From: Spiroplasma phoeniceum P40 | GTDB taxonomy: Bacteria > Bacillota_I > Bacilli_A > Mycoplasmatales > Mycoplasmataceae | DNA: 64,000 nt | Assembly (NCBI RefSeq): GCF_003339775.1 | Contig: NZ_CP031088.1 | Location: 496,001 to 560,000, forward strand | Direction of reading: 5' to 3' | Shown here: piece by piece, positions 3,794 through 46,849 of the stretch | Position numbering within the stretch: the stretch's first letter is position 1 | Layout: the number at the start of each line of letters is the position of its first letter | Position numbers and translations under genes: made by a program | Notes under the pieces: model-generated | Told to the model about the DNA's origin: nothing | The model's input: only the letters and a program-made list of their open reading frames with translations | Database searches by the model: none

Positions 3794-5194
3794 ATGACTA
3801 ATGAACAAATTGAATTATTATGAAGTACCTTGAAAAAACAAAATAATAGTGTTAATCTTCCCCTTACCACTTTTCTTGGTTATAACCAAACAACTGACAT
3901 TGGAACAGTTTTAGCATTATTTGATGCAAATGGTTATCCAGTTACCACATTAAATGGAATTGGATTTATTGCTTTTGATCACACTGTTTTTTATGCCCTT
4001 GGCGGGGGTCAAATTTCTGATACAGGAATATTAATTAAGAAAGACCAGAAAATTTCTGTTTTTGACTTAAATAAACAAATTTACAAAAAAGTATATCTTC
4101 ATCTTGTTAATACTAATGGTACAACAATTGAAATTAATGACGTATTAATCCAAAAAATAGATGTTGAACGTCGAATTAAAATTACAAAAAATCATACAGC
4201 CCAACATATTTTATCTTATATTATTGAGCATATTTTAAATGATGGTGATATGACAGATTCAGTTCAAATTAAAACTGATTATGCTTTCTTAGCAATGAAT
4301 AAAGTTGATAACTGATTAGAAATTATTTTAATCGCTCGTAAACAAATTATTGAGAAATTAATTAATCATAACATTGCGAAAATTGAACATCAAATGCCAA
4401 TTGACCAAGCAAGAGAATTAAAAATTGCTCATCCAAATTTTGAATATGATCCAATTGTTCGTGTTGTTGAATTTCCAACTGCAACAATTGATTTATGTGG
4501 TGGAACCCATGTTAATAACTTAAAAAAAATTAATTTTTTTGAAATTTGAGATTGTTGAGTTGATAAAAAGAAAGTTCGAATACAATTTTCAACAAATAAA
4601 GAAGCAACAGAAAGTTATTTTGCTAATTGAATTAACCAAAAAAAAGATAATTTATACCAAAGTATTAAAAAAATTAAAAGTTATGATGCTGATTTTAATT
4701 TCATAATACCTAATTTTGAAATTCCAACAACAATAATTGCAAAAAATAGTTTAAATACGGAAATTGAACAATTAGAAAAACAATTAAATGAAATTGCAAA
4801 AGAAAAATATAAATTATTATTACAAACAATTGATAATGCTGTTTTTCCATTCAAAGAAACAAGTATTAATAATAATTTAACAATCAAAGAAATTATTATT
4901 AATGATGAAAAAATAACACTTGAACTAATACGAAATAAATTAAATAAATTTTTACAAGAATATGAAAATAGCTTACTAATTTTTATTAATTCAACCTTAA
5001 AATATGGATTCATTAGTTTTACTAAAAAACATCAAAGTAAAATCAATCTTAATAACTTTTTACAAACCAATAAAAATGCCTTTGCAATATCTGGCGGCGG
5101 AACAGCTTTATTTATTAGTTTTACTTTTCAAAATGATATTAAACCATTTTTAGATCTTTTAATAGCAACAGTCAAACAAACAGAAATGGATTAA
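3794..5194 (+). CDS. Free-standing alanyl-tRNA editing protein (AlaX-like with DHHA1 tail)
   Basis: Length is 466 residues. It matches the C-terminal half of alanyl-tRNA synthetase: an editing domain with HTAQH (H134/H138) and CGGTH (C235/H239), the zinc-binding residues of the deacylase site, then a coiled linker and a DHHA1-like tail ending near AISGGGTALFISF. The class II aminoacylation domain is absent, so the predicted role is hydrolysis of mischarged Ser- or Gly-tRNA(Ala). ATG 3794 follows AGAGAGGAA. It is monocistronic: its own promoter and a strong terminator flank it. Confidence 0.85.
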
Positions 5195-5222
5195 AAAGAT
5201 GATATATAATATCATCTTTTTG
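5193..5222 (+). terminator. Rho-independent terminator
   Basis: 13-bp perfect stem AAAAAGATGATAT / ATATCATCTTTTT with a 3-base loop, starting in the stop codon. Confidence 0.85.
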
Positions 5223-5463
5223 TATGAAACAATTTGTTTACTAAATTTTTTAATAATTAGTATCTTTTATTAAAATTATTTATATATTTAATTCTTTCCA
5301 TAATACTTAATATTAATTATTTTGTTATATATAAAAATAATTATAAATGGTAAATAAATCAAAAAGTGTATTAATTTAATTAAAATGATTTTCACAATAA
5401 ATAAGATAGTATTTTATAAACTATGAAAAAATCTGTTAAGAATAAAAAAACAGAAAGGAAATA

Positions 5464-6113
5464 ATGCAATTAAAAAAATATTTAGTTTATTAGCACCCAT
5501 GAGTTTTGTTTTTGGAACTATGTCTAAAATAATTGCCACCAGTTCATTAGTAGACCAGCAAAGAGAACCATTAATAATAGAGGAACAATCAAATTTAGAT
5601 TTATATTATAAAAACAATGATAATAAATGTGATATTGTTTTTAATGATTGAGGTTTTAAAAAAAGATGGATGACGATTGTGACATACATTTAATATTCAC
5701 TTAATTAACCCTATAAATTACAAATACATTATGTTTTTAGGTCAAGAAAGTGATTTTTTTCAAAAATTAGATTAGGAAATATTGAATATTACGGTGATAA
5801 GTTAAATAAATATAATAATTTTCATAGTGATAATGAAACTTGCAAAAAAATGATTAATGCTAAGATTGTTGATGTCAAAGATATTCCTAAATTAATTAAA
5901 CCTGAAAATTATTTTTTAGTTCAAGCACGTTGAGTTAAATATGGAAATGCATATTTTGAAGGCAGTCAACGGTTTGCTTTAACTTGATATTATGAAAATA
6001 ATAGTTATTATATTCAAGTTTTAACACAGCATTGAGTAAATGTTACAGGTTCATCTATCGGCGGTGGAACATGAATGGGAATTGGAACTGGTATTAGATT
6101 ATATAATGATTAA
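5464..6113 (+). pseudogene. Decayed secreted protein gene, function unknown
   Basis: Begins behind AGAAAGGAAAT with MQLKKIFSLLAPMSFVFGT, a clear signal peptide, and then a polar mature region. The reading frame must change at about 5665 and again at about 5765 to continue. The third segment reads through several UGA Trp codons (VQARWVKYGNAYFEG and TWMGIGTGIRLYND) to TAA at 6111. It looks like a small exported surface protein lost by two indels. I do not recognise the family. Confidence 0.65.
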
Positions 6114-6224
6114 TAATAATATTGCTATAAATAAATCTCTAAAGAATCTTTTTTAGAAAATCATTAATTGTCTTAGAACATAACTAATTAAATATATATC
6201 TGCATAAGTTTGTTTCAAAAAAAT

Positions 6225-6246
6225 AAAAAGCACTTTAATGCTTTTT
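6225..6246. terminator. Bidirectional terminator between convergent genes
   Basis: AAAAAGCA / TGCTTTTT stem with a 6-base loop and T/A runs on both sides. It serves the minus-strand CPBP gene and possibly the plus-strand pseudogene. Confidence 0.75.
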
Positions 6247-6255
6247 TAAAATTAA

Positions 6256-7215
6256 TTATGCTAAAAATTTTGGTGCAGCAAGCATTAAAATGGCAACAAT
6301 GCAATTATAACCAGCATGCGGAATTATGGTATATGTAACATTTCCATTAACAATAAGAAATAGCATTCCTAGTGTTAATGATGCTCCAATATATCCAATA
6401 AAATGTTCTCAATCACCGGTTCCAGCGACATGCATGCCAGCAAAGAAAATTGTTGATGCAACAAATCCAAGTCATTTGTTACCACTTAAACTAAAAATTC
6501 CGTGTCTAGTTGCTAATTCTTCAACAACTGGAGCAATTAAAATTGTATAGATAAATAAGAAAACAATATTTCACCATTTATCTAGTCCTTTAATTAAATT
6601 ATTTTGATTGTTTGAAGTTGTTACTGTTATTAATGATTGTAAATAAACAAAAAATAAATGAATTGAAAAAACAGCAATAATACTAATTGAGAAAACAACA
6701 AAAAGACTTTTGCAATCTTGTTTTAAAGTTAATTTAATTTTTTCAAAAATTAATGGTGATGACCGATAAAGAATAAAAATTGTCACCAATCCCACAATTA
6801 TTAATGTTAATAAATTAATTGTTGTTTTAACACTATCAGATGGATGAAACTGGTTTACAATGGTTCCAATTACTAAACCAATAATATTTGGAATAAAATA
6901 AAAATAATAAAAGTAAATAGCACCTGATCGCATAATTTGATTTTGTGCACCACTAATAACAAAATATGAGCCAACTGCAACAATAATCCAACTAATAAAG
7001 TTCATCCCTGCTAAAGCATATTCATTATGTGTAAACATATATGAAATTAGAATATTAATAAAAAAGGGAGCAAAAATAGCTGTTCCTAAAAAAATATAAC
7101 CCGTATTTTTAAGTTTAACTAAATTAAAATCAAAGGGAGCAGCACGTTCAACTAATGTTGGTTTTAACTCATATCATGCTCTTTTACGATTATAAACATT
7201 ATCATTATTAGTCAT
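6256..7215 (-). CDS. CPBP family intramembrane metalloprotease
   Basis: Length is 319 residues with about eight hydrophobic segments. The family's motifs lie in the C-terminal half: EELATR (EExxxR), FAGMH (FxxxH) and HAGYN, the metal-coordinating residues of Rce1/CPBP (ABI) membrane proteases. ATG 7215 follows AAAGGAGT at good spacing; several UGA codons are read as Trp. The substrate is unknown. In bacteria the family processes membrane peptides or handles bacteriocin-like peptides; nothing next to it points to a partner. Confidence 0.85.
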
Positions 7216-7244
7216 TTTTATTACTCCTTTAAATCCTACTTTTT

Positions 7245-7250
7245 ATTATA
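7245..7250 (-). promoter_or_regulatory. Probable -10 box for the CPBP protease
   Basis: TATAAT on the minus strand about 30 bases upstream of the start, in an A+T-rich spacer. The -35 is not clear. Confidence 0.4.
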
Positions 7251-7320
7251 TAATAAATTAGTTAAAAATCCATTTAAAATTTAAAATTATTTGGTACAGA
7301 ATTTTGAATCCATCTATTAA

Positions 7321-7344
7321 AAAAGACATTTTGCAATGTCTTTT
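7321..7344 (-). terminator. Terminator of gpmI
   Basis: Perfect 10-bp stem AAAAGACATT / AATGTCTTTT with a 4-base loop, followed on the minus strand by T residues. It overlaps the gpmI stop. Confidence 0.8.
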
Positions 7345-8920
7345 ATTTAATAATTAATGATGGTTGTGTCATTTCAGGGGGAATTTCTTCACCTAATAAA
7401 TCTAAGATTGTCGGAGCAATATCAGCAATTGCCGCATTATCTTTTCGTAATTGTAATCCCTCTTTTGTAATAATAATTGGAACCAATTGTGAAGTATGCT
7501 TTTTATTAGGGCCCCCTGTTTCATCAATCATAATTTCAGCATTTCCGTGGTCAGCAGTAATAATCATAATTCCGTTAACTTTCTCAATTGCTGCATAAAT
7601 TTTGCCAAGACAATCATCAATAGCTTTAACTGCTTCGATTGCGGCTGGTAAGATTCCAGTATGCCCAACCATATCACAATTTGCAAAATTTAAAATAATA
7701 ACATCAAATTCATTTCGATTAAGTTCAGCAATTAATTTATCAGTAATTTCATACGCTGACATTTCTGGTTTTAAATCATAAGTTGCTACTTTTGGTGATG
7801 GAATTAAATCTGCTGAAGCCCCTGGTAATGTAATTTCGGCTTGTGTTGCTAGACCATTTTTAAAATAATCTTTTCCACCATCAAAGAAAAATGTAACATG
7901 AGCAATTTTTTCTGTTTCAGCAATTCGCAATTGACGGTAACCTTTTTTACTTAATCATTCTCCTAAACCATTAATAACTTCAATTGGTTTAAAAGCAACA
8001 TGTTTTGAAGCAACTGTTTCTGCATATTCCATCATTGAAACAAAATAAATATCATATAATTTTGGCATAAAATAAGTTTGTGCATCATTACCCGGAAAAT
8101 TAGGATTTGTTAAAGCCGAAGCTATTGCAATAGCACGATCAGGACGAAAATTAGCAAAAAAGACAGCATCACCTGATTTAATATAACCTCTTGGAGTATT
8201 AATATTATATGCTGGCATTAAAAATTCATCATTACGGCCAGCTTGATATTCACGGTCAATATATTCTATTGGGTCAATAAATTCCGAGCCTTTTCTTGAA
8301 ACTAAAACATCATAAGCAACCTGCACTCGGTCATATTTTTTATCACGATCCATTGCGTAATAACGACCACCAATGGTTGCAATTTCGCCAACTTTTAATT
8401 CGTTTTGTAATTGTTGAAATTGTTTAAGATAAATTTTAATACATTCTGGTTTAGTATCACGTCCATCACCAAAAATATGCAAGTAAATTTCTTTTATTCC
8501 TTCTTGTACTACTAATTTATAAGCAGCAAAAATATGGTTTAAATGTGAATGAACACCACCATCTGAAAATAATCCCATAATATGAAAAGCACCATTATTT
8601 TTTTTTGCAAAATTAATTGCAGCTAAAAGTTCTGGATTTTGATTAAATGTTCCATCTTTAATTGCTTTATTAATTAAAGTTAATGATTCATATTTAATGC
8701 GACCTGCTCCTAAATGAATATGTCCAACTGCAGAATTTCCCATTTGTCCTTCTGGTAAACCAACTCATCCTCCTGCCGCATGTGCTGAGACTCATGGATA
8801 TTTTGCTTTTAGCTTTTCAACATTGACCATATGCCCTTGTGTTACAGCATTTCCTTTTGAATCAGGTGCAATCCCTCACCCATCAAGAATTGCCAATAAA
8901 ATTGGTTTTTTAACTTTCAT
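7343..8920 (-). CDS. gpmI: 2,3-bisphosphoglycerate-independent phosphoglycerate mutase
   Basis: Glycolytic interconversion of 3- and 2-phosphoglycerate. Length is 525 residues, normal for the family. It starts MKVKKPILLAILDGWG behind AGGAG. The catalytic serine lies in GNSAVGH and the manganese-binding TADHGNAE motif is present. Three UGA Trp codons fall at conserved positions. It forms a single transcription unit with a terminator overlapping the stop. Confidence 0.97.
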
Positions 8921-8964
8921 TTTATTATTTCTCCTCTTTTTCTTTTTTCTTAACAATTATATAA

Positions 8965-9778
8965 TTATTTTCTATTATTGAGAATATATTTTTCAATCAT
9001 TTTTGCAAAACCACCTGTTTCAACGGTTGTCGTTACTTCTTTTGCTATTGCCTTGATTTGTTCTTGACTATTCTCCATTGCAATTCCCAATCATACATTT
9101 TTAATTATTCAATAATCATTCATACTGTCACTAATTGCCATCATTTCTGATAAAGCAATATTCCATTGGGGTGAAATTCATTTCAAACCAGCTAATTTAC
9201 TAATCTCTTGAGCATTTATTTCTGCTGTTCCTGAGGCATCAATTGCAATTTCAATATTTTGCTCACGAGCTGCAATAATAAAATCGTCGTTTTCATGAAC
9301 ATCTATTACAATACATTTATAACTTTTATTTTGAATTGTTAATGCAGAATCATATTGAATAAACTCTCCATAAAAAAATGCTAATTCAGAATTATTTTCA
9401 GCAACAGGATTAAAATTAACAATAACTTTGGTTAAATAATCAGTATAACATCATAATTTTTTATGATATTTTTTTGCCAATTGGAATAAAAAATTAACTT
9501 GAGAAGTAGACAAGGTTTGTTGATAAAAAATTGTATGTGTCTTAATATCATAAATACATGCACCATTAAAACCAATAAAGTATTGAATGAAAATAATCCA
9601 TTTTTACTTTAATAGCTTCTGATAACGAAGTTAATACTGGTCGTCCTGTTGCAAAAATAACTTGTACCCCCATTTCTTGTGCTTTAATAATTGGCATAAT
9701 ATTGGCCTCGTGAATCCCTTGATGAAAGGAACAAGCAGTTCCATCCATATCTAATGCAATTAATTTAATTTTAGTCAT
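8965..9778 (-). pseudogene. Cof-type HAD phosphatase, frameshifted
   Basis: Starts MTKIKLIALDMDGT (HAD motif I DxDGT) and shows the Cof pattern ATGRP (motif II region). The frame breaks near 9575: where the family expects DYFIGFNGACIYD, about 13 extra bases interrupt it, and IGFNGACIYD resumes in another frame. The second frame continues to ILNNRK and TAA at 8965, including motif IV-like MAISDSMND. Total length (814 bases) is one off a multiple of three. Members dephosphorylate sugar phosphates or flavin phosphates. It could be a sequence error, but the insertion is large. Confidence 0.8.
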
Positions 9779-9880: not shown

Positions 9881-10849
9881 TTAAAAAACTGCATTTGCAT
9901 TTTCAGTTGCTACTTCATCTTTTAAAAGTCAATATCTTAATTGCGGACGAAAACCATAAATAGCACCTACACAACCACCTAAAATCGATAAAACAATTAA
10001 AATAGTAATAAAAACAGTTAATCAAGGACGTATTTTCTTTGCACAATTTTTACATTGACATTGAATTTTTTCAATATTTGCTTGATGTTTTTTGCTATTA
10101 GTTCCTTTTTGCTGCTTATCATCAAATAAATCGGGTGGTCCTGGTATTCCAATATTCATATTTTTGCCAAGTCCAACTTTAATATTTGGATCAATTGGGG
10201 CATTTAAGAAATCTGATGGTTTAATTGAAGTACGATTTTGCATATTAGCAATTCGTTCAGCAATCGTTTGAGATTGAGTTACTTGTCCCGATAATTGTTG
10301 TGAATTTTCTTGCATAGTATTTATTTGTTGGTTATTTTGTTGTCCTCAATTACTAACATTAGGAGAATATTGTTCATTTACATTTTGTTGTTGATATTGC
10401 GACGCTGATTGAACTCCTTGGTTATTACTAAGCTGATTATAATTTTGATTAGGTCCATTCTGCTGCTGATACTGTGAACCAAGATTTGATTGTTGATTAA
10501 ATTGCTGTGGTCCAATATTTTGCGGTGGACGTTGCATTAAATTTTGCTGTTGATATTGTTGTGATAATTGATCCCCTTGGTTAGTACTAAGTTGATTATA
10601 ATTTTGACTATTACCATTTTGTTGTTGATATTGTTGTGAACCAATATTTATTGTTGGTGAATATTGTTGTTGCGAAATATTTTGTCCGACCTGTCCAGAT
10701 GTTACTGGATTATAATTTTGATTAGGTCCTTTTTGTTGATAATTTTGTTGTGAAACATTAAAATTATTTCCCTGGTTAAAAGAAGTTTGCTGTTGGTTAC
10801 TTTCTGGCTTGTTGCCTGAACCATTGTCAAAAGAATGTTTAAAATTCAT
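9881..10849 (-). CDS. Q/N-rich tail-anchored membrane protein
   Basis: Length is 322 residues (an ATG five codons upstream at 10864 also exists; 10849 has GAAGG at better spacing). Residues about 10-185 are Gln/Asn-rich with a repeating block (QYQQQN..QNYNQLS.NQG) of some 30-45 residues, seen at least three times. Next come a more ordinary linker, a Cys cluster CQCKNC, one hydrophobic helix (LTVFITILIVLSILGG) and a short tail. The predicted topology is a long cytoplasmic disordered region anchored by a C-terminal helix. It is last in the gpsA block, 79 bases after gpsA. I recognise no family; the composition resembles prion-like or scaffolding domains. Confidence 0.75.
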
Positions 10850-20367: not shown

Positions 20368-20462
20368 TAAGTTAAGTGTGTAGATTATTTATTCCATAAT
20401 TTCTTGAAATATAGTAAATACCCCAAAATAATTTATACTACCAGAAAAGTTGACTTTATTAG

Positions 20463-21318
20463 CAACAAAAATAAAATTAAAATTAAAAAATAATGTTTTA
20501 TATATTCAAATTGACGGTGCTTTTGTTCCTATGTGAGAAAATAAAAAAAGAGTTGAAAAGAAAATATTTTTTCAACTATGCATATTGGTATTGATGAAAA
20601 AAAATCAACTAAAACAAGAAAAATAATTAAAAAGAAAAAAGGTGTTTTTCAAATGATAAATAAAAATACTAATAAAAATGAAAAATATAGTTTTAATAAT
20701 TTTATTGACAAAATTTTTAAACTAATGGATACTTATGATATTAATGAAAATACTATAATATTAGTATTAAGTGATGGTGAAAAACAATTTAAAAAAATTT
20801 ACAAAGCAATAAAAACAAAATATAAAAATAATACTGTATCATATAGTTTGAATAAATTTCATTTAGTAAAAAGATTTAAAGACTTATTTTCATATATAAA
20901 TAGAAACAAAATTCATAGATTAAAATATAAATTAGCAAAAATATATTTTTTTGCTGGAAATTATGAAGTGTTATTAGATTTTTTAATTTGTCATTTACCT
21001 TATGTTATTGATAACAAAAAGAAATTTTTACTAGAAACTATTGAATTAATTAAAAATAATAAAGATGGTATTGAAAATCAAGCATTAGAATATAATATTG
21101 GTTGTCATGTTGAAGGTGATGTTTAACATTATATTAAGGTTGTTAAGAGTCGTGGTGCAAAAATATATTGTAAAGAAACATTTAATAATATTTTAATTGC
21201 TTCAATGTTAAGACTTAATAGCAGAATTAATGAAGTTAAAATTAATAAAAATAAAGAAAAAATTGAATTTAATATTTTCAAATTAAATCAATCTCAAAAT
21301 CAATTTTTATCTTTATAA
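20463..21318 (+). pseudogene. UPF0236/ISLre2-type transposase, 5'-truncated and frameshifted
   Basis: Reads NNVLYIQIDGAFVPMWENKKRVEKKIFF, then one T is missing from a T run near 20572 (the copy at 40.5 kb has the extra T), so the frame moves before STMHIGIDEKKSTKTRK. The second part contains VLSDGEKQFKKIYKAIK, NKFHLVKRFKDL and GCHVEGDV. A TAA (21124) replaces the Ser codon of EGDVSHY, after which the frame continues to TAA 21316. The N-terminal third is missing. The family moves UPF0236 insertion elements. Confidence 0.75.
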
Positions 21319-30613: not shown

Positions 30614-30683
30614 AATTTTTACTATTTTATATTTTTAATAATGTTAATATAATATCAATTTTAATATGCAAAAAGGAGTAAAA

Positions 30684-31085
30684 ATGAAAGAATTTAATCC
30701 AAAAACAGCAAGTTTGGCAACTTTTTATCGTAAAATAGAACAATTTTGAGAAAATAAATCACCTAATAAACCATATACTTTGAATGATTTAACCAATGAA
30801 TTTAACCTTTCTCGCAAGTGAAGATATGATACTTATGCGAGCGAAAAGATAGTTCCTTTGCTTGAACGACAAGTTGATAAAATTGAAAGTGAAATAATTA
30901 ATTTTATGATGAAATCACCTGATGGTGCTAAATTATATTGACAACGAGCATTTAATTATAAATATTCATTACAAGAAAAAGAAATGGAAAAAGAATTAAA
31001 CTTAAATAATCAACAACCAATCATTGTTAATTTGCAAACTGACATTAGAGATATTAAAAAAGAAGAAAGTGATAATAATGCTTAA
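30684..31085 (+). CDS. Probable phage terminase small subunit
   Basis: Length is 133 residues. Starts after AAAAGGAG. The sequence has a helix-turn-helix-like segment (YTLNDLTNEFNLSRKWRYDTYAS) and a charged helical C-terminus (QEKEMEKELNLNN), the usual layout of small terminases, and it overlaps the large-subunit gene by 8 bases. Assignment rests mainly on this context. Confidence 0.6.
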
Positions 31086-32145
31086 TCATTTTACTTATTT
31101 GTTAGAAATTCCTTATTGGTTATTACAAAATAGTAGTATTGGTAATAAATATCCATTTACTAAAAAGTTTGAATTAGTTAATGAAATTAATCAAATTGGA
31201 ACACGATATAGTGGTAAGACTATTTCAAATATTAAAATGTTTGGTGAATTATTAAAAATTAGTTTATTAATTAAAGAACCAATTTGTATAATTGCTAGTA
31301 TGTATTGGAGTAAAGATTTAAAAGATAGTGTATTTCAAAATATATGAAATATGTTAGATGAAAATAATATTCCTTATACTATTAATTTATCAAATTTTAC
31401 TTTTACTCTATCAAATGGTAGCAAAATATATTGTAAAGGTTTACATTCACCAAGTAGGAAAGAAAAATTGAAAGCCCTTTCTGACTTAAACAAATATAAA
31501 TTAGTAATTGATTGACGAGAAGAATGTGATCAATTTCAACAAAAAGACTTAAGTGATTTAGAGTTTGCTATTCGTGGTTATCAAAATAAAATAACAATTA
31601 ATACATGTAACCCTGAAAGTTTAAAAAGATATATTGTTGGTTATTGTAATCAATTATTACCTTTTAATGAAGAAATAATGCGTAGTAAATATGAACAAAT
31701 AAAATATATTGAAAAATGAAATATGAAAATTATTATTCATTATTCTAGTTGAAGATTAAATTATGAACTACCACAAGATAAAGTTAATGAACAATTAAGA
31801 TTAGAACAATTAGATATTGAAAGAGCAAAAGTGTGGAGTTGAGGTTTACCAGGCAATACTAGTGGGTCAATCTTTGCAAGATATATTGATATTATGCAAG
31901 CAACAGATATTATACAACCAACAAAATTATTAGGTGGTGTTGACTTTGTAGAAACCACACACATTTTTTATTTTTGGTTTTTACAGTTTTGGAAAGTAAA
32001 TTTTTTTAATATTTTTAATTGAGGAGTTGAAATTATGAAAACAAAGCAATATTTTATTTTGCGGTCCCTAGTGAAAAAGTATGGTAAAGATAATGTTATT
32101 AATACTGTTAATAAGATTGCAAAAGATATTGAAATTAAAAAGTAA
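31078..32145 (+). pseudogene. Phage terminase large subunit, truncated and fused in frame to an IS reading frame
   Basis: Residues 1-290 match a large terminase: TRYSGKTISN (P-loop), IDWREECD (Walker B with catalytic Glu), TINTCNPES (motif III-like), then LGGVDF, the start of the nuclease domain, where the insertion sequence begins (31956). The frame stays open across the IS end and reads into MKTKQYFILRSLVKKYGKDN... to TAA 32143, giving a 355-residue chimera. The nuclease domain is lost and not found after the IS, so packaging function should be dead. Confidence 0.7.
32035..32145 (+). CDS. IS orfA-like 36-residue N-terminal segment
   Basis: MKTKQYFILRSLVKKYGKDNVINTVNKIAKDIEIKK, behind GAGGAG, is a helical basic peptide of the kind that starts transposases (HTH). 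It ends just before a perfect hairpin, and the catalytic part lies in the next frame. It may be the real N-terminus of the transposase, separated by a rearrangement. It is also in frame with the interrupted terminase. Confidence 0.5.
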   Translation: MKTKQYFILRSLVKKYGKDNVINTVNKIAKDIEIKK

Positions 32146-32148
32146 AAG

Positions 32149-32191
32149 AATAAATTATTCCGCTAATAAATTACGCGGAATAATTTATTCA
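32149..32191. repeat. Perfect 16-bp hairpin inside the IS
   Basis: GAATAAATTATTCCGC and GCGGAATAATTTATTC are exact reverse complements with an 11-base loop. It sits between the two transposase frames. Confidence 0.8.
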
Positions 32192-32203
32192 GTAGTGTTT
32201 TTA

Positions 32204-33013
32204 ATGGAGCAAAGCGACAACGAGCGGAGCGAGTTTGCAAATTTCAATTTTTTAGTTTTTTGTGATTTATATTTTGAATATTGTAATAAACATGATGGTG
32301 GTGTTTTATCTTTGTTTTATAATTTAAAAAAAGGAATTCATGGAGAAGAATTAAAAAATAAAGCACCAAAAAATTTAAAAACATTTTTTCGTTGACTTAA
32401 AAAAGATGAAAGATGATTAAAAATAAAAAATAAAATTAAAGAAATTAAAAAACAACATCCAAAATATGAAGTTAAAGAAATAGGTTTGTTACAGATGGAC
32501 GCTAAATATTTTGTACCAAGTAAATTTCCAGTTGATAAAAAGTATTATGTTTATGATTTTATTGATGAAAAAACAAGATTAGCATTAGGATATGTTTATG
32601 ATAAATTAAGTACTGATAATGCTATTGATGCTGTTAAAAAAGCAATTAGTGATTTTAAAAATATATTTGGTATTATAATAACACGGATTAGAACTGATAA
32701 CGGTTCTGAATTTATTAATAATTATCGTAATAATCAAAAAATTAGTGTTAAAAAAACTAATTTTACTCAATTTTTAACAGATAAAAATATTTTGCATCAA
32801 ACAACACCAATTCGCTCTCCACAGTCAAACGGTAAGATTGAAAGATTTCATCAAAATTATACTAAATTATTTGTATTTGAAGAAAAAATATTAAATGCAG
32901 TTAGTTTACAGAATAAATTAAATGATTATTATTATTTTTATAATTTTGAAAGAGTACATAAGTCTTTAAATTTTCAGACACCATTTAATTTTTTGAATAG
33001 TTTAATTAAATAA
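32204..33013 (+). CDS. IS transposase, rve/DDE integrase core
   Basis: Length is 269 residues from ATG 32204; the frame is open further left, but that part overlaps the orfA-like peptide and looks non-coding. DDE residues are visible: LQMDAKYF (first Asp), RTDNGSEF (second Asp), NGKIERFHQN (Glu). HKSLNFQTPFNFL ends the core as in IS481/IS3-like enzymes. The peptide MEQSDNERSEFANF before the core comes from purine-rich DNA unlike the rest. It may depend on a frameshift or be inactive. Confidence 0.75.
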
Positions 33014-35775: not shown

Positions 35776-37818
35776 TTAAATATAATTAATATTAAAACGG
35801 AAAGTAATTGATTGAAGATGGTCTGGAACATTTTCTTTTGCTTTTAATTCTAATTTAATATCAAGAACAGTTAAATTACTATATCTTTCTTCACTGCTAA
35901 TTTGCAATGCATAAAATCAATCATTAAAAGTAGCAGCACTATTATGATAATTATTTAAAGGTGTAAATGTGATAATATCGTCTGCAATTCCATTAGCATA
36001 ATCTATTTGTGATACATTATCACTAATGTTTAAATTGTTTCCTGCCATTTGACTAATATTTTGTATAAATTCCCATGTACGATTAACAATTTGTTTTTGT
36101 AGTATTGCTTTAAATGAAGTTACATCATGTGGAATATTTCGAACATCAATATCAATGTAATTTAATGGTTTTTGTGCTCAATATAAATTAGCACTTCAAT
36201 ATTTTGTAAATAAAATATTTCGTTTTTGTTTATCACTAATTAAATAGGCATCATGATCACCGGGATTAACTAAATTAGTAATTGAATGTAACGATGGTTG
36301 ATCAATTATTACATAGTTTGTTTTTGCCACTTGATTATTATTAAAACTAATTGTTAAATCACCATTTTCTTGAATCGTTCTTTTAACAACAGTATAATCT
36401 GCTTTTTCAATTATTCCATATGATTGAAATGGTAAAATATTTCAATCATAAACTCATTTATATTTTGAACTATTAGGGTTACTCAAAACATCTTCTTGTA
36501 ATTCTCTAATTGCTGTTGCTAATGAATATTTTCCATTTAAAACATCTTTAATTTGCTCTCCCAATCGATTTGCAATCACATTTTGAATTGTTTCACCTTG
36601 TGGTAAAAACATAAAGTAAAATTGCTCTGGTTGGTTAACATTTAAAGGTTTTGGTTGAAGATGTTGATATCAAAATTGTCATTCGGTTGGTACAAGTTCT
36701 TTTGGTAAGACTAAACCACGATTTTGTGATGTTTCTAAAATATTAATTAAAAAAATTAATAATTGTGGAATATATTTACCATTAATTTGAGTATCTGTTT
36801 TTTCAAAACTTTGCTCTGAATCACCCTTTTTATATGCTGACTGAATTACCCGATTAATATCAAGCATATAATGCGTACTATCAATAACAGTTCCTGGAAG
36901 CAGTTGATCATTTTGATTAACACTTGAAATAGCAAAATTACTATATGGATTATAATCACCAATAAATTCTTTATCATTTCCTTTATTTTCTGCATAAAAA
37001 GCAGCAAAACGTTCTTTATAGGCAGCATAAACTTGATCTGCTAACGCCAAACTATCATTAGTACCATTAATCATAATATTATTAGCTTGTTCACCTAGAA
37101 CATTTGTTTGTTTTTCTCAAACTGTTGGTTTTAAATAATCTTTGTTTCTTGTTTCTCCTAATTTAAAACTTAAAAAGTTTGATAAAAATCCTTGATTTCC
37201 AACAAATAGGGTTGGCATTCAAACCAGATTTTTTTGGATTACGTCTTCGTATTTGATTTTTAAAAATAATAAATTTTTCATCAAATTAAATTGGTTTTTT
37301 TGCACATCAGCAAGACTTAACTGTTGTGCCCCTCGTGAATCAGTATAAATATCTAAAATTTGAATTTGCTTAGGATCTTTGTATTTATTCTTAAAAAAGA
37401 TATTTTTTGTAATGTATAAACTAGGTGCTTTTTCAAAAATTAAATTATAAGCATATTCTAATCGTAATGATCTCGCACGAGCGCGAGTTTGTGCAACTTG
37501 CCCAGTATTACGGTCAGGAGGAATTTCATAAGTTTCAAAAACCGGAGTTGTTGTTGTATTATCGCGTAGTTTTGTTTTTGCAAAGTTAACTTCAAAATAA
37601 TCCCCATCATTAACATCAGGCAAGGGTCCATCAGTTTCAATTCCACCATAATTTAAAATATTTGCTAAAAATGACACACCAAAATAAGCAGAGGGAATTA
37701 AAGCACCAAGATATAACACAGCACAAATTGCGGCAAGTCACCCTTTTTTACGTGATGCTACAGTAACATTCTTTGTTAAGTTATTAAGTTTATGTCAACT
37801 ACCTGGTTTTCTTGCCAT
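35776..37818 (-). CDS. Large membrane-anchored extracellular protein
   Basis: Length is 680 residues. A basic N-terminus (ARKPGSWHKLNNLTKN) is followed by one hydrophobic helix (WLAAICAVLYLGALIPSAYFGV, about 27-48) and a long ectodomain rich in Asn, Gln and Tyr; no lipobox. RBS AAGGAGA. Architecture as in the protein at 27807. It is followed by the lipoprotein gene 71 bases downstream, so the two surface proteins may work together. Function unknown. Confidence 0.75.
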
Positions 37819-37939: not shown

Positions 37940-38062
37940 ATAAAAAGTGGTAGTAAGAAAAAAGATGAATTAAATCTAAATTTAGAACAAGAATTTAGCA
38001 GTAATGAAATAAATGATGATGAAGAAATTGCTAAAACTGTTGATGAAATTTTTTCTGATTAA
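37940..38062 (+). pseudogene. C-terminal fragment of a phage-like protein
   Basis: KSGSKKKDELNLNLEQEFSS then an acidic tail ending IFSD; no start codon. Highly charged ends of this kind occur in small phage proteins. It lies 4 bases before the HNH gene. Confidence 0.35.
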
Positions 38063-38066
38063 GAAA

Positions 38067-38420
38067 ATGAAAAATAATTGAAAAGATTATGATAAAAATC
38101 GTCCAATTAGACATAAATTTTATCGCAATAAAAAATGAGTAAAAATAAGAAACGATTATTTTAATAGCAAAATGGGAATATGTAAACGATGTTATCAAAA
38201 AAGATATATAGTTAATGGCGTTATTGTTCACCACAAAGAATATATTACCGATCAAGATTTTATTAATTGAAACATTGATAAACTTTTTGCATGAAAAAAT
38301 TTAGAACTATTATGTATGAAATGCCACAATAAAGAACACAAAACCGAAAAAGGATATCGCGATAATGTCATAATTGACGAAAAAACTGGCAAAGTAAAAA
38401 TAATCGATAAAGAAGAATAA
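38067..38420 (+). CDS. HNH endonuclease, phage type
   Basis: Length is 117 residues. GICKRCYQKR (first Cys pair), VHHKEY (catalytic His pair), NLELLCMKCHNKEH (Asn, second Cys pair and final His) give a complete zinc-bound HNH fold. In dsDNA phages such genes sit next to terminase genes and assist genome packaging. Here the neighbours are phage fragments. RBS weak (AAGAAA). The gene appears intact. Confidence 0.85.
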
Positions 38421-38547
38421 AGACTTTGATAAAGCAAGCAAAGTTGTTTCAGAAACACAACTTTATAAACAAGCTGGTAATAGCATTGTGATTGATGTAT
38501 TAGAAAAGATTTTTATAAAAATGTTTAAAACAGAAAAGAAAAATTAA
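38421..38547 (+). pseudogene. Cytosine-5 DNA methyltransferase, C-terminal fragment
   Basis: TQLYKQAGNSIVIDVLEKIF corresponds to motif X (YKQAGNSI) of the family. Only the last 40 residues remain, directly after the HNH stop. It complements the N-terminal fragment at 21511-21981, but the two lie 16 kb apart. Confidence 0.75.
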
Positions 38548-38564
38548 CAAAGGAAGTGAAAAAA

Positions 38565-38744
38565 ATGAATAGTTATAAAATAATAATAGGATATTATAAT
38601 AAAATTTGTTCTGTTTGTAATAAAGAAATTCCAATTATTTTTACCCAAGCAGGATTATTAAAAATTAATGAAAATGAAAATCAATTACTTTATAATGGAC
38701 ATTTTAAATGTATAAAAAATAAGTATGATAAGATTAATTTATAA
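38565..38744 (+). CDS. 59-residue Cys-containing protein
   Basis: MNSYKIIIGYYNKICSVCNKEIPIIF has CxxC at 15-18 and a later HFKC, suggesting one zinc site. The ATG at 38565 follows GGAAGTG. Not recognised; part of the phage-like string. Confidence 0.5.
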   Translation: MNSYKIIIGYYNKICSVCNKEIPIIFTQAGLLKINENENQLLYNGHFKCIKNKYDKINL

Positions 38745-38768
38745 ATATTAAAATAAGGAAAAAATATT

Positions 38769-40174
38769 ATGGAATATAATTTTAAAATTAGTTTATTCAA
38801 AAGCATTGCAGAAGAACAAGAATTAACATTATATACAAATAAGCTAAATATTATTTTTGGAGAAAATAGTTCTGGTAAAACTGTTCTATTAGATGCTATA
38901 AAATGGGTATTAGGAGAAGATAATAACTTATATTAAAAATTATGATAAATTGGATAATTTTATTTTTAAAATAGAACAAATTAATAATTTAAAATTTAGT
39001 GAAAATGAAAAATTTATAACTTTTACCAGAAAATATAATGAGGGTACATTATGGGAAAACAATGAATTTGATTATGAAGGTAATCCTACTTTTATAAATA
39101 AAATTAAAAGAGAAATTTATGAAAAATATGAAAATTATTGACCAAAAAGTTTTTTAACTGTAAATAAAGATTTAAATGATGAAAAAATATTAATTTCTTT
39201 TAAAGAAAATATTACTCATCAAGATACTAAACCAAAAGTATTAAATAAATTAGTAAATAATAAAGAAATGAATCTAAAAGCAAAACAAAAATAGATTTTA
39301 TTTATATTTTAGATAAATTTAATAAACTTAATTTTGATTTTTATAAAAATAATGATTATGATATTTCTTCTGCAACAGAAAATATTTCTTTCCCCTTAAA
39401 TGAAATAACAAAAATATATTCAGATAATAAAAATTCAGATAATAAATATTTAAAATTATTTTGTGATTTCTTTGGAGGAAAAAAATCGCGGAAGAAATTA
39501 ATAAATTTATTAATTTGAATAATATAACAGAATACGATAAACAAATTCGTAATAATTTTAAAAAAGTAATAGAGAATAATACTAATGAAAAAATTAAAAA
39601 TATTTTTTTAAATATATTTTCAATCAATAAATTATTTTTATTACTAAAAATAAAATTAGAAAATGATTATTTAGAGTTATGTGTGGAAGATCAAAATAAT
39701 TCTAGATTATTTGGTGGACAATCACCAAAAGAACAGAGTCAGGGATATAAACAAATTTTTTATTTAATAGCTATTTTAGAAGGAATAAAATTAATTGACG
39801 AAAACAAAAAAAGAATTAATTCTAATTCCAATAGTTGTTTTATTTGATGAACCCGATAAAAATATTCATTATTCTATTCAAAAAGAATTATCAAAATATT
39901 TAATAAAATATATTAACGAAAATAAAAATATTTTAATAGTTATTGCTACACACTCGGGATTTTTACTTTCTGAAGAAAAAGAAGAAAATAATGAAGAAAA
40001 TAATATAATTATTACTAAATTATTAGAAAATGGTCAAACAGAAATTAAAGAATATGATGAAGTAAAAAAAATGATAATATTGATTTTGATAATTCAATTT
40101 TTCCTATTAATTCCTTTTATTTAATTTCTAACTGATATAAAAAAATAGAAGAAATAATTAAAAAAGTAAATTAG
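38769..40174 (+). pseudogene. AAA/SMC-like ATPase (OLD-type), multiply frameshifted
   Basis: Pieces in three frames give one protein of about 460 residues: GENSSGKTVLLDAIKW (Walker A), FGGQSPKEQSQGYKQ (signature-like), VVLFDEPDKN (Walker B) and ATHSGFLL (H-loop). At least five indels (about 38925, 39285, 39485, 39805, 40070) break it. Similar ATPases occur in phage-defence and plasmid genes. No nuclease domain is seen. Dead as it stands. Confidence 0.7.
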
Positions 40175-40711
40175 CATTTTGATATAATGAAGAGGAATAT
40201 ATTAAAAAATATAATAAAGATATTAATATAGAAAAAATTAGATTGAAAAAAATTTAAAAGATAGATATTTATATTTTTTGAGTGATGGAAAAAGATATAA
40301 AGATATTTTACATACAACAGAGAATGCAAATATTAGCGAAAGAACAATATCTAATATTTTTAAAAATGCCGATTTAGAAGAAACCGATTACATTAGTAAT
40401 AAAAATAACAATAAAATTAAAATTCCAAATAATATTTTATATATTCAAATTGACGGAGCTTTTGTTCCTATGAGAGAAAATAAAAAAAAGAATTGAAAAG
40501 AAAATATTTTTTTCAACTATGCATGTAGGTATTAATGAAGAAAAATCAACTAAAACAAGAAAAGTAATTAAAAAGAAAAAGGGTGTTTTTCAAATAATGG
40601 ATAAAAATGTTACTAAAAATAAAAAATCTAGTTTTAATAATTTTATTGACAAAATTTTTAAACTAATGTATACTTATGATATTAATGAAAATACTATAAT
40701 ATTAGTATTAA
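40175..40711 (+). pseudogene. UPF0236/ISLre2-type transposase, N-terminal fragment
   Basis: Reads EEYIKKYNKDINIEKIRL, LKDRYLYFLSDGKRYKDIL, SERTISNIFKNADLEE and IQIDGAFVPMRENKKK. An extra A near 40488 then shifts the frame before STMHVGINEEKSTKTRK and on to ILVLS. Another shift lies near 40255. Homology to the copy at 20.7 kb ends at 40711, where pdhA begins on the opposite strand. Confidence 0.75.
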
Positions 40712-41349
40712 GCTGCAAAGTTTATTGCTTTCGTTGCTTTACGACGCGGAGTTGAAATTGCATACTGATTATTTTCCACAATAAAAATTGCTGGAACTTC
40801 ATGTAACTTCGCAAGGTTCATTGCTTCATAAAATTCTCCTTCAGAAGAACCACCATCACCAGTTGTTGTAATAACAACACCATGACGTTTATTATATTTT
40901 TCAGAAAATGCTAACCCAGTTGCATGCGAATATTGTGTTGCAATTGGAATATTAATTGGTAAAGTATTAATTCCTTCTGGCATATAACTTCCCATTTCAT
41001 TTCCACATCAATATAACATAATATTGCGCATTGGAACACCTGTTGCTAATCAAGCAGCATTATTTCGATATGCTGAGGAAAATCAGTCTTTTCCTTTAAT
41101 AATTTGCATTCCATATGCTACTTCAGTTGCTTCTTGACCAGTTGATGAAAGAAATGATAGCATTCTTCCTTGTCTTTGAATTTTATTTTGAAAATCATCT
41201 TGGCGACGTGATAAGCACATTAATTTATACGCTGTTAAAACCTCATCGTCACTAATTTTTGGCACCAAATCTGGTTTAACAATCTTTCCCGTTGCATCCA
41301 TAATTTGAAGCATTTCATTTTTTAACGAATCAAATTTGTTAAAATACAT
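40708..41349 (-). pseudogene. pdhA: Pyruvate dehydrogenase E1 alpha, 3'-truncated
   Basis: Residues 1-213 of an enzyme of about 370. Starts MYFNKFDSLKNEM behind CAGGAA. It has the E1 substrate-channel region (SSTGQEATEVAYG), the thiamine-diphosphate/Mg motif GDGGSSEGEFYEAMN and NNQYAISTPRRKATKAINFAA, and then ends at the edge of a transposase fragment with a chance TAA. The C-terminal third, with the phosphorylation-loop/active-site His region and subunit contacts, is absent, and pdhB, pdhC and pdhD do not follow. It lies 37 bases downstream of lplA. Confidence 0.85.
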
Positions 41350-41386: not shown

Positions 41387-42373
41387 TTAGGTAAAAATAA
41401 CATCTAAAATTTCTTGTAGTTCAAATTTATTCCCAAAAATATCTTTAATATTAATTTCTAATAATTTTGTTTTAATTTTATCCAGATTATATTCACAACC
41501 TGTTAAAAGAGTTTCAAGTGGCTCTGTTCCACTAGAACCTAAAAAATCACCAAAAAATTTAATGTTCGTAATTTTTCCTTCATTAACATTTAAACGCACA
41601 TCAACGGTACCTTTTCCTTCATATCGAATTTTATTCTGATAACTAAATTCAGGTGAATTACCAAAGTTTCATTCCCATGTTTGATATTTTTCATCAGCTA
41701 GTTTATTAACTGCCGCAATAATATCTTGTGGTAAATCTAACACTGGTGTTCCTTGTGCTAAAAACTCATTAGTAATAAATAGCATAAATTCATCAATTGT
41801 AATATCATTTGTTAATAATGGTCGAATATTAGTTACTCGTGCCGGAATTGATTTAATTCCTTTTGAAATAATTTTATCTTGACTAACATTTAAGTATTTT
41901 TGCATTTTACTTAAATCAACATCAAATAAAAATGTTCCATGGTGTAGCAACCGATTTTTATACTTTATTTGTGCATTACCAGAGATTTTTTTGCCATCAA
42001 TTTCAATATCATTTTTACCAGCAAACTTAGCATTTAAACCAAGTTTTTGTAAAACATTAATAATAGGTTGTAAAATACTTTCATAATTTTGCGCAATTTT
42101 ATCATCTTTATTAACAATAATGGAAAAACACAAATTACCATCATCTTGATAAACAGCCCCACCACCTGTTATTCGACGAGCAACATTCACCTTATCAGTT
42201 TCAACCGCTTGTAAATTAATTTCTTCAATCGTATTTTGATTTCGACCAATAACAATTGTATTAAAATTTTTTCACAAAAAGAAAATGTTGTCTTTAATAT
42301 CACTTTTTAAAAGATACTCATCTAAAGCCAAATTAAAATAAACATCTGTAGAAGAATTTTTAAAACAAATCAT
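41387..42373 (-). CDS. lplA: Lipoate-protein ligase A
   Basis: Length is 328 residues. It activates free lipoate and attaches it to lipoyl domains of 2-oxoacid dehydrogenases. Motifs: RRITGGGAVYQDDGN (lipoyl-AMP site), GKNDIEIDGKKISGNAQ (catalytic Lys region) and HHGTFLF. The C-terminal accessory domain is present. It begins 5 bases after nox and precedes pdhA, so the substrate was probably the PDH complex encoded here. RBS is poor (AAGAAA). Confidence 0.93.
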
Positions 42374-42378
42374 TTTTC

Positions 42379-43737
42379 TTATTTTTTAAAGTAATTTAAT
42401 CCTAATACTTCTAAGCCTGGTAAAGTAATAAAGTTATATGGCTTATTAAAATGTGGCAAGAAGAAAATATCAATTAATGGTAGTTCATCAATTGTAACTC
42501 CCTTCATAATTGCTAATGAAAACATATACATAACTTCGGTATGATTAGCCTCTGAAGCTATTTGTGCACCAATAATTTTTCTTGTTTTTTTGTCTCAAAG
42601 AATTTTAATTAAAACTTCTTGATATGTATCCATAAATTCTGGACGATCATTATCAGTAAATGTAATTTGATCGTAATCAAATCCTAAATCTTTTGCCACC
42701 GTTTCTGTCATTCCTGTTGAAGCTAGCGCTCAACCAAAAACATTAATTGCATTTGAACCTTGGAATCCTGGTGATGCTAAACCTGCTGGTTTTAAAGCAT
42801 TAACAGCTGCAATAACTCCTGTTCGGACAGCATTTGTTGCTAAAGCAATATATGCTGGCTGTTTCTTAGCATTATCATAAACTTCAACACAATCACCAAT
42901 TGCAAAAATATTTGGGTCTGATGTTTGCATATATTGATCAACTTTAATGGCTGCATTTTTGTCTAAATCAATAACACCATTTAAAATTTCTGTTGCAGGT
43001 TTAAAACCAACTGACCAAATTACTAAATCAGCATCATATGAACCTTTATCTGTTACTACTTTTTTTACTTTATTATTTTTACCCTTAAATTTAATAACTT
43101 TTTCGCCACCACGTAAATTAACAACCGCTTTACGCATTGCTCCTTCAACTTTATCAGTAAAAGGTTTATCGTAATAACGTGGCATAATGCGATCTGAAAT
43201 ATCAACTAAAGTAACATTTTTTCCTTTTTGATGAAAAGCATCAACTAATTCAACGCCAATGTATCCTGCCCCACATACAACAACATTTTGAATATTTTTG
43301 TCATCATTTGCTTTTTTTACTAATTCCCCATGTTGAAATCATTTAACAATATGAACACCTTCCTGCTTAATTCCTTCAATTGGTGGAATAATTGGTCAAG
43401 AACCAATCGCTAAAATCAATTTATCATAATTATCATCAAATTCATTTCCTGATTTTAGATCTTTTACACGAATTTTTTGATTTTTATTATCAATTGATAA
43501 TACTTCATGCTCCATGTTTACTTTAATACATTCATTTTTTAATACTTCTGGTGAAGCATAAAATAAACCGTTTGGATCTTTTACCTCTCCTGAAACTCAT
43601 AGTGCAATTCCGCATCCTAAAAATGAGATATTGTTGTTTTTATCATAAGTAACAATTTCTGCTTTCGGATCTAATCGTCTTAAGGTTCTAACAGCAGTTG
43701 TACCTGCATGGTTAGTTCCAACTACAATAATCTTCAT
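42379..43737 (-). CDS. nox: NADH oxidase (H2O-forming, CoA-disulfide-reductase family)
   Basis: Length is 452 residues. FAD motif [13 protein letters not shown], redox-active Cys in [13 protein letters not shown] motif [19 protein letters not shown] motif [10 protein letters not shown]. Regenerates NAD+ by four-electron reduction of O2; in mollicutes it balances glycolysis and pyruvate oxidation. RBS AAGGAGAA; first gene of nox-lplA-pdhA. Confidence 0.95.
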
Positions 43738-44956: not shown

Positions 44957-46807
44957 TTATAATAAAAGCCCTGGATTTGATAATAAATATGCAACATAAT
45001 GGATAAATTTACTTGCTTCAGTAATATCAATTACAGCTTCATTATACCCCAATGTAATTACCATAATATCACGAATTGCAATATCATTTTTTTCAACCAC
45101 AACAGGTTTTTTAAAAATAATACCCATTGCAATTGCGGCAACATTATCATCTGGAATTGTAAATGTTCCCCGTGTTATTCCATATTCACCATAATTTATA
45201 ATTGAGAATGAGGCATCTTGACAGTCTTTTTCTTTTAATTCATTATTAATACTTTTACTTATTAATTTTGTTACCTTTGAAGCAATTTCTTTAATTGAAA
45301 CATTTTTTAAATTATATAAAACAGGCATTTTTACTGCAGTATCACTATCTACACTAAAAGCAATATTATAAAATCATTTTAATAAAATTTTATTTTTCTG
45401 ACTAATAAAGGATGCATTTAAAACAGGGGTTTTTTTTAATCCATCATAGACTGCTTTAACATAAAAAGGCAATAATGTTAATTCAATATCATTTTGTGAA
45501 TATGCTTCACGCATAATTGACAATAAACTAACTAACTCACTAACATCAACTTCAACATCAATAAAACAATGGACAATATTTTTTTTACTTTCCATAATTT
45601 CTTTTGCACGAATAATTGCTTCTTGATTTAATTTTACCTTGTCAACTTGCAAAGTTTGTGGATTTTCTTTTATTTTATGTTCTGAAGAAACGGAATGTTC
45701 CCTTGACGTTGCATCTTCTGACTTATGCTTTTTAAGATTAGAGGAAACAGACGAATGAACCGTCGAATGTGACTTTGAATGTTCACCATGATGTCCCTTC
45801 GGCTTATCCTCTACTGGCTTATGCTTTTCATAATGCGACGAAGCAGACGAATGAACCGTCGAATGTGACTTTGAATGTTGACTATGATGCTCCTTCGGCT
45901 TATTTTCCACTAATTTATCTTGCTCTAAATTTATAATAGGTTCCATTTTTGAATCATCAACATTATTTATACTTTGAGCAAAATTACTTTTTAATTCTTC
46001 TTTTGTATAATTTTCTTGTTTGTATTCTTCTCTATCAAAGGGTTGATGATGTAAGGGGTCTAGTTTTTTATCATCAACTTGTTTTCTCACAGCCATTTCT
46101 GCTGTAAATGCTAAATCACGTTCTAAATTTTCAAGTTCTTCAATAACTTCTTCTTCAATTGTTATTGTTGCTAAATCATCTTTAACAATTGCCAAATCTT
46201 CTTTTAAATCACCCAAATCTTTTTGCAATGTTTCAATATTTTCTTCACTAGGAATATTCTCAAGAACATTTTCAACTTTATCTTTAAACGGAAATGTCTT
46301 TGAATCATTATTCTGGCTAAAAAATGGGGTTGAATCTTGTTCTATATTTTCTTCTGATAAATCAATTTCAATTGAATCTTCAAAATCATCTTGTGGATTT
46401 TCACCAGCTACTTCACGTGCTAGTAATGTTTCAATTAATTCTTCGCGAAAAATTTCTGTTTCTGATTTTTTAACATCAATTGGTGACCGATTTTGTACAT
46501 TATATTTTCCAGAACCATTAAAATAAATATTATTATAGGGTTGCTCAAAATTATTGCCATGTTCATTAAGGGTTGCCTCAAATGGTAATAAATCTAATAA
46601 AACATCACCACTATTAATAACTTTATTTTCATAAACAATAAGATTTAACACTTCACCAGTAATTGGCGCTTTAATTTCATAAACTTTATTTTGTGTAATA
46701 ATGTTAGCAAGTTTATCCCCCTTTTGGACAACTTGTTTATTTGTAACAAAAATTTTATCAACAATTCCTTTGCAATTATCATCTGCTTCAAAAATAATTT
46801 TTGCCAT
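44957..46807 (-). CDS. Lipoyl-domain protein with degenerate E2 acyltransferase domain
   Basis: Length is 616 residues. Residues 1-76 form a biotinyl/lipoyl domain (MAKIIFEADDNCKGIV...); the expected DKA lysine context reads QNKVYEIKAP (K41). The long middle (about 90-410) is acidic, then His/Ser/Lys-rich with a 34-residue tandem repeat (HSKSHSTVHSS). The C-terminal 200 residues resemble the 2-oxoacid dehydrogenase acyltransferase domain (FIDVEVDVSELV, LLPFYVKAVYDGLKKTP, FSIINYGEYGITRGTFTI), but where HRxxDG belongs the sequence reads YNEAVIDITEA, so the catalytic His is missing. Start ATG 46807 after GGGGGG. Confidence 0.7.
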
Positions 46808-46849
46808 ACCCAACCCCCCGTATTTTCTAACTATATATTAGCATAACTT

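What the first reader, a model, noticed from the sequence alone, without database searches (positions are those of the whole stretch)
40700..41349. pdhA cut off by a transposase fragment
E1 alpha stops at residue 211 exactly where UPF0236 sequence starts on the other strand, and pdhB-pdhC-pdhD are missing. Unless the rest lies elsewhere, pyruvate oxidation is lost or the operon has been split by recombination between IS copies.
Basis: partly seen in the sequence, partly recalled or inferred. Interest (0 to 1): 0.65.

Follow-up and report, generated by a model that had tools for sequence, protein, structure and literature searches.

The report
Truncated, lost pyruvate dehydrogenase operon
A plant-pathogenic Spiroplasma has lost most of the genes for its pyruvate dehydrogenase complex through one local deletion filled with mobile-element scraps; related species show other states of the same loss, so it looks like real gene decay rather than a sequencing mistake.

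Summary
By size, the genome is Spiroplasma phoeniceum P40. pdhA runs for 212 codons and then meets, bluntly at 40712|40713, an internal piece of a UPF0236/Mbov_0401 transposase gene. Against S. citri R8-A2, 4,174 bp are gone (pdhA 3' part, pdhB, pdhC, pdhD), replaced by 2,766 bp of prophage, ATPase and transposase scraps. Gene order is kept on both sides, and searches found the missing genes nowhere else. So PDH is lost, by a local deletion, not by a split through IS-IS recombination: the transposase piece lacks both ends of its element. An assembly artefact is unlikely: S. kunkelii (97-98% identical nearby) has a different deletion of the same operon, G012 a decaying copy, G007 no pdhA or pdhB. 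Of 14 genomes of the genus, 9 keep pdhA and pdhB and 5 do not. P40 still has intact lplA, pta, ackA, nox and ldh and a constrained pdhA fragment, so its loss looks recent. PDH loss in three other Citri-clade strains is already published. A modest, clean case of recurrent gene loss.

The parts
40713..41349 (-). 5' 212 codons of pdhA (pyruvate dehydrogenase E1 alpha), no internal stop or frameshift; open frame closes at 40708 in foreign DNA
40240..40712 (+). internal piece of a UPF0236 / Mbov_0401-family transposase-like gene, lacking both ends of the element; joins pdhA bluntly
39461..40124 (+). broken gene: 39795-40124 has weak, sub-cut-off AAA_15/AAA_21 ATPase matches; 39461-39859 matched no family
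37954..38755 (+). prophage-type fragment with an HNH endonuclease ORF (38013-38420); its first part has five 97-98% copies elsewhere in the chromosome
37946..37947 (.). distal breakpoint: homology to S. citri resumes 17 bp after the end of pdhD
35776..37818 (-). conserved 680-aa gene that follows pdhD in intact genomes; shows that the locus is syntenic
41387..42373 (-). lplA, lipoate-protein ligase, intact here, broken in S. kunkelii
42379..43737 (-). nox-like flavoprotein (452 aa; name recalled), intact, upstream neighbour in intact genomes

Best explanation
This is a real, recent and local loss of the pyruvate dehydrogenase operon in Spiroplasma phoeniceum P40. An illegitimate (non-homologous) rearrangement replaced the 3' part of pdhA and all of pdhBCD with a mosaic of prophage and transposon debris. 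It is one of several probably separate losses in the Citri clade. Shown: the breakpoints, the synteny, the absence of the missing genes from the assembly, the different remnants in relatives, and the intact lplA, pta, ackA, nox and ldh frames. Inferred: that the cell now disposes of pyruvate mainly as lactate through LDH, that the remaining AckA-Pta pair could make acetyl-CoA from acetate, that the 213-aa E1 alpha piece is useless without E1 beta, and that the change was one event rather than an insertion followed by a deletion.
For: Intact operon order nox-lplA-pdhA-pdhB-pdhC-pdhD-680aa gene in S. poulsonii MSRO_BK; lplA-pdhABCD in the same order in S. citri and S. melliferum. The window matches S. 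citri up to L148:6170 and again from 10345. Family and protein searches of the own genome find only two transketolases, DXS, two E2-like proteins without the DHRxxDG motif, Nox and one broken flavoprotein. Genus survey of 14 genomes: pdhA and pdhB full-length in 9, missing or partial in 5. The S. kunkelii CR2-3x deletion runs from inside lplA to pdhD codon ~165 (citri 5178-9436), with an insert sharing only scattered short matches with P40's. G012 keeps a frameshifted, transposase-interrupted pdhB-C-D. Pta intact in 9 of 9 PDH+ genomes and in P40, broken or absent in 4 of 5 PDH-less (Fisher p 0.005 ignoring kinship). LDH frame intact in all 5 PDH-less genomes. pdhA fragment dN/dS 0.05-0.07 against melliferum and citri.
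Against: No reads could be inspected, so the exact base join is not proven. Absence from a 99.5%-complete assembly is not absolute proof. Pyruvate formate-lyase was not searched. The timing test is weak: the neutral expectation since the S. kunkelii split (6.2 changes) is not rejected (P 0.26). Shared ancestry of part of the P40 and S. kunkelii deletions cannot be excluded, since citri 6171-9436 is missing in both. The Drosophila-associated strains that lack PDH are reported as the sister clade (PMC12453411), so one early inactivation followed by separate erosion remains possible.
Confidence: 0.87

Rival explanations
1. Assembly artefact: pdhBCD exist in the cell, but the assembler joined pdhA to a repeated transposase fragment and dropped the rest.
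For: The join lies in a repeat family (7 other places at 88% identity or more), next to other multi-copy prophage DNA. No reads available.
Against: Both flanks stay syntenic; a misjoin would also have to lose about 4.2 kb of unique sequence. Independent assemblies of close relatives lack the intact operon too: S. kunkelii, G012 and G007, whose contig length equals the Pieris-symbiont record PmM2021_Spiro.
Confidence: 0.07
2. Homologous recombination between two copies of the UPF0236 element inverted or moved the rest of the operon elsewhere in the chromosome.
For: The element is multi-copy and touches the break.
Against: The pdhA 3' end and pdhB are not in the genome; the piece at the break lacks both ends of the element; gene order beyond both breaks is ancestral.
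Confidence: 0.03
3. PDH was inactivated once, in the common ancestor of P40, S. kunkelii, G012 and G007, and each genome has since eroded differently (a variant of the best explanation on timing, not an alternative to the deletion).
For: These four group together in the LDH tree, with weak internal support, and all lack PDH; the published PDH-less Drosophila strains are sister to S. phoeniceum plus S. kunkelii.
Against: The P40 pdhA fragment shows 6 nonsynonymous differences from S. citri, 4 polarised to P40; about 15 are expected if neutral since the G012 split by the 680-aa gene (P 0.001 for 4, 0.009 for 6), though only about 11 if the LDH dS of 0.044 is used. sNigra, placed at a polytomy with this group, is reported to keep the whole operon. 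P40 keeps lplA and pta intact.
Confidence: 0.25

Closest known systems
PDH loss in Drosophila-associated Citri-clade Spiroplasma (sAld-Tx, sHy2, sMoj; PMC12453411, passages and one section read)
   Same: Same operon lost or broken in the same clade; reported there as pdhA pseudogenised, pdhB and pdhD absent, pdhC complete
   Different: Different remnants; here pdhA 5' survives, pdhB-D are gone, and lplA, pta, ackA are intact. S. phoeniceum and S. kunkelii are not among the strains named in the passages on that ten-strain comparison; its Fig. 2 has more columns that I could not see
S. kunkelii CR2-3x (G004)
   Same: 97-98% identical flanks, PDH operon gone from the same locus
   Different: Deletion starts in lplA and ends in pdhD; pta is also broken
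PDH loss in other Mollicutes such as Mycoplasma hominis and hemoplasmas (recalled; search listing only)
   Same: Reductive loss of pyruvate oxidation
   Different: Not tested here

Membership tests
Functional pyruvate dehydrogenase operon (pdhABCD) | Full-length E1 alpha (about 371 aa) | tested here: not met
   212 codons only; TIGR03181 positions 1-199 of 341, below cut-off
Functional pyruvate dehydrogenase operon (pdhABCD) | E1 beta, E2 with DHRxxDG (motif recalled), E3 present | tested here: not met
UPF0236 / Mbov_0401 transposase-like family | Profile match of the element's protein over cut-off | tested here: met
   full copy L005: PF06782 46.2 bits (cut-off 24.3), NF046004 174.5 (cut-off 162); the window piece is 94% identical DNA
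UPF0236 / Mbov_0401 transposase-like family | Complete element with its ends at the break | tested here: not met
   internal ~472 bp of ~1.65 kb
IS-IS homologous recombination product | Displaced operon half found at another copy | tested here: not met
Assembly chimera | Read support breaks at the join | not testable with these tools
   no reads held

The most novel reading that the evidence does not exclude
The pyruvate-to-acetate branch (PDH, then LplA and Pta) is being lost repeatedly and independently in the Citri clade, always with LDH kept, while some PDH-bearing relatives (S. poulsonii, G006) have instead broken LDH. Each lineage keeps one outlet for pyruvate, and P40 is caught just after the first step, with the partner genes not yet eroded.
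Probability: 0.45. Interest if true: 0.45.

Novelty: new member of a known kind. Interest (0 to 1): 0.3.

Why it matters
It turns a suspected assembly oddity into a roughly dated step of metabolic decay in a culturable plant pathogen. It predicts that P40 and S. kunkelii make lactate and cannot oxidise pyruvate through PDH, and it gives a small set of genomes in which the order of loss (PDH, then LplA and Pta) can be tested. It also warns against annotating PDH in these genomes from the E2-like paralogues.

Tried and rejected
Second operon: rejected. Compensation by the E2-like proteins: rejected, because both lack the catalytic DHRxxDG motif and no E1 beta or E3 was found. Other TPP pyruvate enzymes: PF02775 gave only one weak, sub-cut-off hit in P40, inside dxs. 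The LDH tree places G011 outside citri+melliferum with 0.81 support only, so the number of losses is not counted firmly. Literature searches: Spiroplasma, pyruvate dehydrogenase, pseudogene; Spiroplasma, pdhA, kunkelii; PDH loss, Citri clade; Spiroplasma kunkelii, pyruvate dehydrogenase; S. phoeniceum. I searched PMC12453411, PMC3563533, PMC9666726, PMC10306273, PMC7356856 and PMC5874924 for terms and read the passages shown (the last two gave none), and section 18 of the first. None of the passages read reports the P40 or S. kunkelii deletion; figures and supplements were not seen.

Full report
Identity. PMC11320922 (whole text) gives S. phoeniceum P40 as 1,908,276 bp, one chromosome and three plasmids: an exact match. 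By the same reasoning G002 is S. citri R8-A2 (chromosome 1,599,709; abstract), G004 is S. kunkelii CR2-3x (100% plasmid match), G005 is an S. melliferum strain (contig of 57,604) and G007 has the length of the S. phoeniceum MAG PmM2021_Spiro (2,179,570). That record corresponds to the circular 2.17 Mb contig from the butterfly Pieris mannii described in PMC10306273 (passages); that the two are the same is my inference from size and name.

Observation. Read in code 4, pdhA starts at 41349 on the minus strand and stays open for 213 codons to a TAA at 40708-40710. Alignment with S. citri and S. melliferum ends at 40713, and alignment with six other copies of the transposase in the same genome ends at 40712. 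The join shows no microhomology. The E1_dh and TIGR03181 profiles match only their first 178 of 300 and 199 of 341 positions.

What is missing. In S. poulsonii MSRO_BK the order is nox, lplA, pdhA (371 aa), pdhB, pdhC, pdhD, then a 680-aa gene; S. citri and S. melliferum agree. The window has nox, lplA, the 5' part of pdhA, 2,766 bp of foreign DNA, then the 680-aa gene. In S. citri coordinates (L148) homology stops at 6170 and resumes at 10345, just past pdhD (last aligned codon ends at 10325); 4,174 bp are absent, including about 155 codons of pdhA.

The insert. 37954-38755 is prophage-type DNA with an HNH ORF; its first 468 bases have five copies at 97-98%, and its first 742 one relative at 93%, elsewhere in the chromosome. 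That these copies are prophages is my reading of the gene types, not a search. 39795-40124 holds the end of an AAA_15/AAA_21-like ATPase, below the curated cut-offs. 40240-40712 is 88-94% identical to seven other places in the chromosome. Full copies are about 1.65 kb and are over the cut-offs for UPF0236 and the Mbov_0401 ICE transposase-like family. The window piece is internal to the element and has neither end, which speaks against a simple insertion and against recombination between intact copies.

Elsewhere in the genome. PF00676 found the window copy and two transketolases. PF02779 found the same two transketolases and DXS. PF00198 found two E2-like proteins, one in the window at 44957-46813; neither has DHRxxDG. 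PF02852 found Nox in the window and a broken flavoprotein at 906 kb that gives no tblastn match to S. poulsonii PdhD at 1e-3. PdhB of S. poulsonii finds only DXS, at 27%. The same tblastn settings recover all four genes in S. citri. PF02775 gives one weak, sub-cut-off hit in P40, which falls in dxs.

Relatives. Of 14 genomes of the genus searched, 9 have full-length pdhA and pdhB (G010 has one TAA inside the aligned pdhA stretch, open frame 369); G000 has pdhA codons 4-217 only, G012 pdhB 222-329 only, and G004, G007 and G011 only weak or no hits. In S. kunkelii the deletion runs from lplA codon ~222 to pdhD codon ~165, lplA carries stops, and half of pdhD remains. Its 1,278-bp insert shares only scattered short matches with the P40 insert. 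G012 has pdhB cut off with a transposase-type gene upstream, another between pdhB and pdhC, and frameshifted pdhC and pdhD (transposase labels by eye). So the assembled loss in P40 fits a pattern seen in independent assemblies.

Partner genes. Pta is intact in all 9 PDH-bearing genomes and in P40; it is broken in S. kunkelii, and only weak hits to a 315-320-aa frame remain in G007, G011 and G012 (Fisher p 0.005 without correction for kinship). P40 also keeps ackA; S. kunkelii keeps an ackA frame. LDH has a full frame in all 5 PDH-less genomes; it is broken in G008 (S. poulsonii) and G006, both with PDH. lplA is found in 11 of 14 genomes: intact in the 9 PDH-bearing ones and P40, in pieces in S. 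kunkelii, not found in G007, G011 and G012.

Timing. The P40 pdhA fragment differs from S. citri by 20 synonymous and 6 nonsynonymous changes (dN/dS 0.07), 4 amino-acid changes falling on the P40 side. Neutral decay since the split from G012, dated by the 680-aa gene (dS 0.059), would give about 15 nonsynonymous changes (P 0.001 for 4, 0.009 for 6); the LDH gene gives dS 0.044 and so about 11, a weaker test. Neutral decay since the S. kunkelii split would give 6.2 and is not rejected (P 0.26). The P40 loss is thus probably no older than roughly that split.

Literature. PMC12453411 (passages; [quoted passage not shown] melliferum and sNigra among them) keep it, and that S. phoeniceum plus S. 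kunkelii are the sister lineage of the former. PDH loss in this clade is therefore known in kind. I found no text describing the P40 or S. kunkelii deletion in searches, but figures, supplements and the P40 genome announcement (not held) were not seen.

Verdict. Observation confirmed; interpretation half right: PDH lost by a local deletion, not split by IS recombination. Ordinary reductive evolution, with mild extra interest because several stages of the same loss are visible side by side.

Noticed in passing
window 44957-46813 (-) and L101:1492-3627 (-): Two E2-like acyltransferase paralogues that lack the DHRxxDG catalytic motif; the window one has a lipoyl-like N-terminus and a His/Ser-rich linker and has counterparts in S. 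poulsonii and S. kunkelii. Function unknown, perhaps structural.
   Followed up: partly
L205 (G006), L206/L207 (G008): Lactate dehydrogenase is broken in two PDH-bearing genomes, the reverse of the PDH-less genomes, which all keep it.
   Followed up: partly
window 20458-21126: A second, also incomplete, UPF0236/Mbov_0401 transposase fragment in the same window.
   Followed up: partly
window 30666-33013: ORFs that look (by eye, not searched) like prophage terminase subunits followed by an integrase-type transposase.
   Followed up: no
L107 (G000:C1 about 906 kb): A flavoprotein disulphide-reductase-like gene broken into overlapping frames.
   Followed up: partly
L208-L212 (G009, G008, G010, G006, G003): A strong TPP_enzyme_C gene (266-aa frame) present in five of the 14 genomes of the genus but in none of the seven Citri-clade ones.
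   Followed up: no
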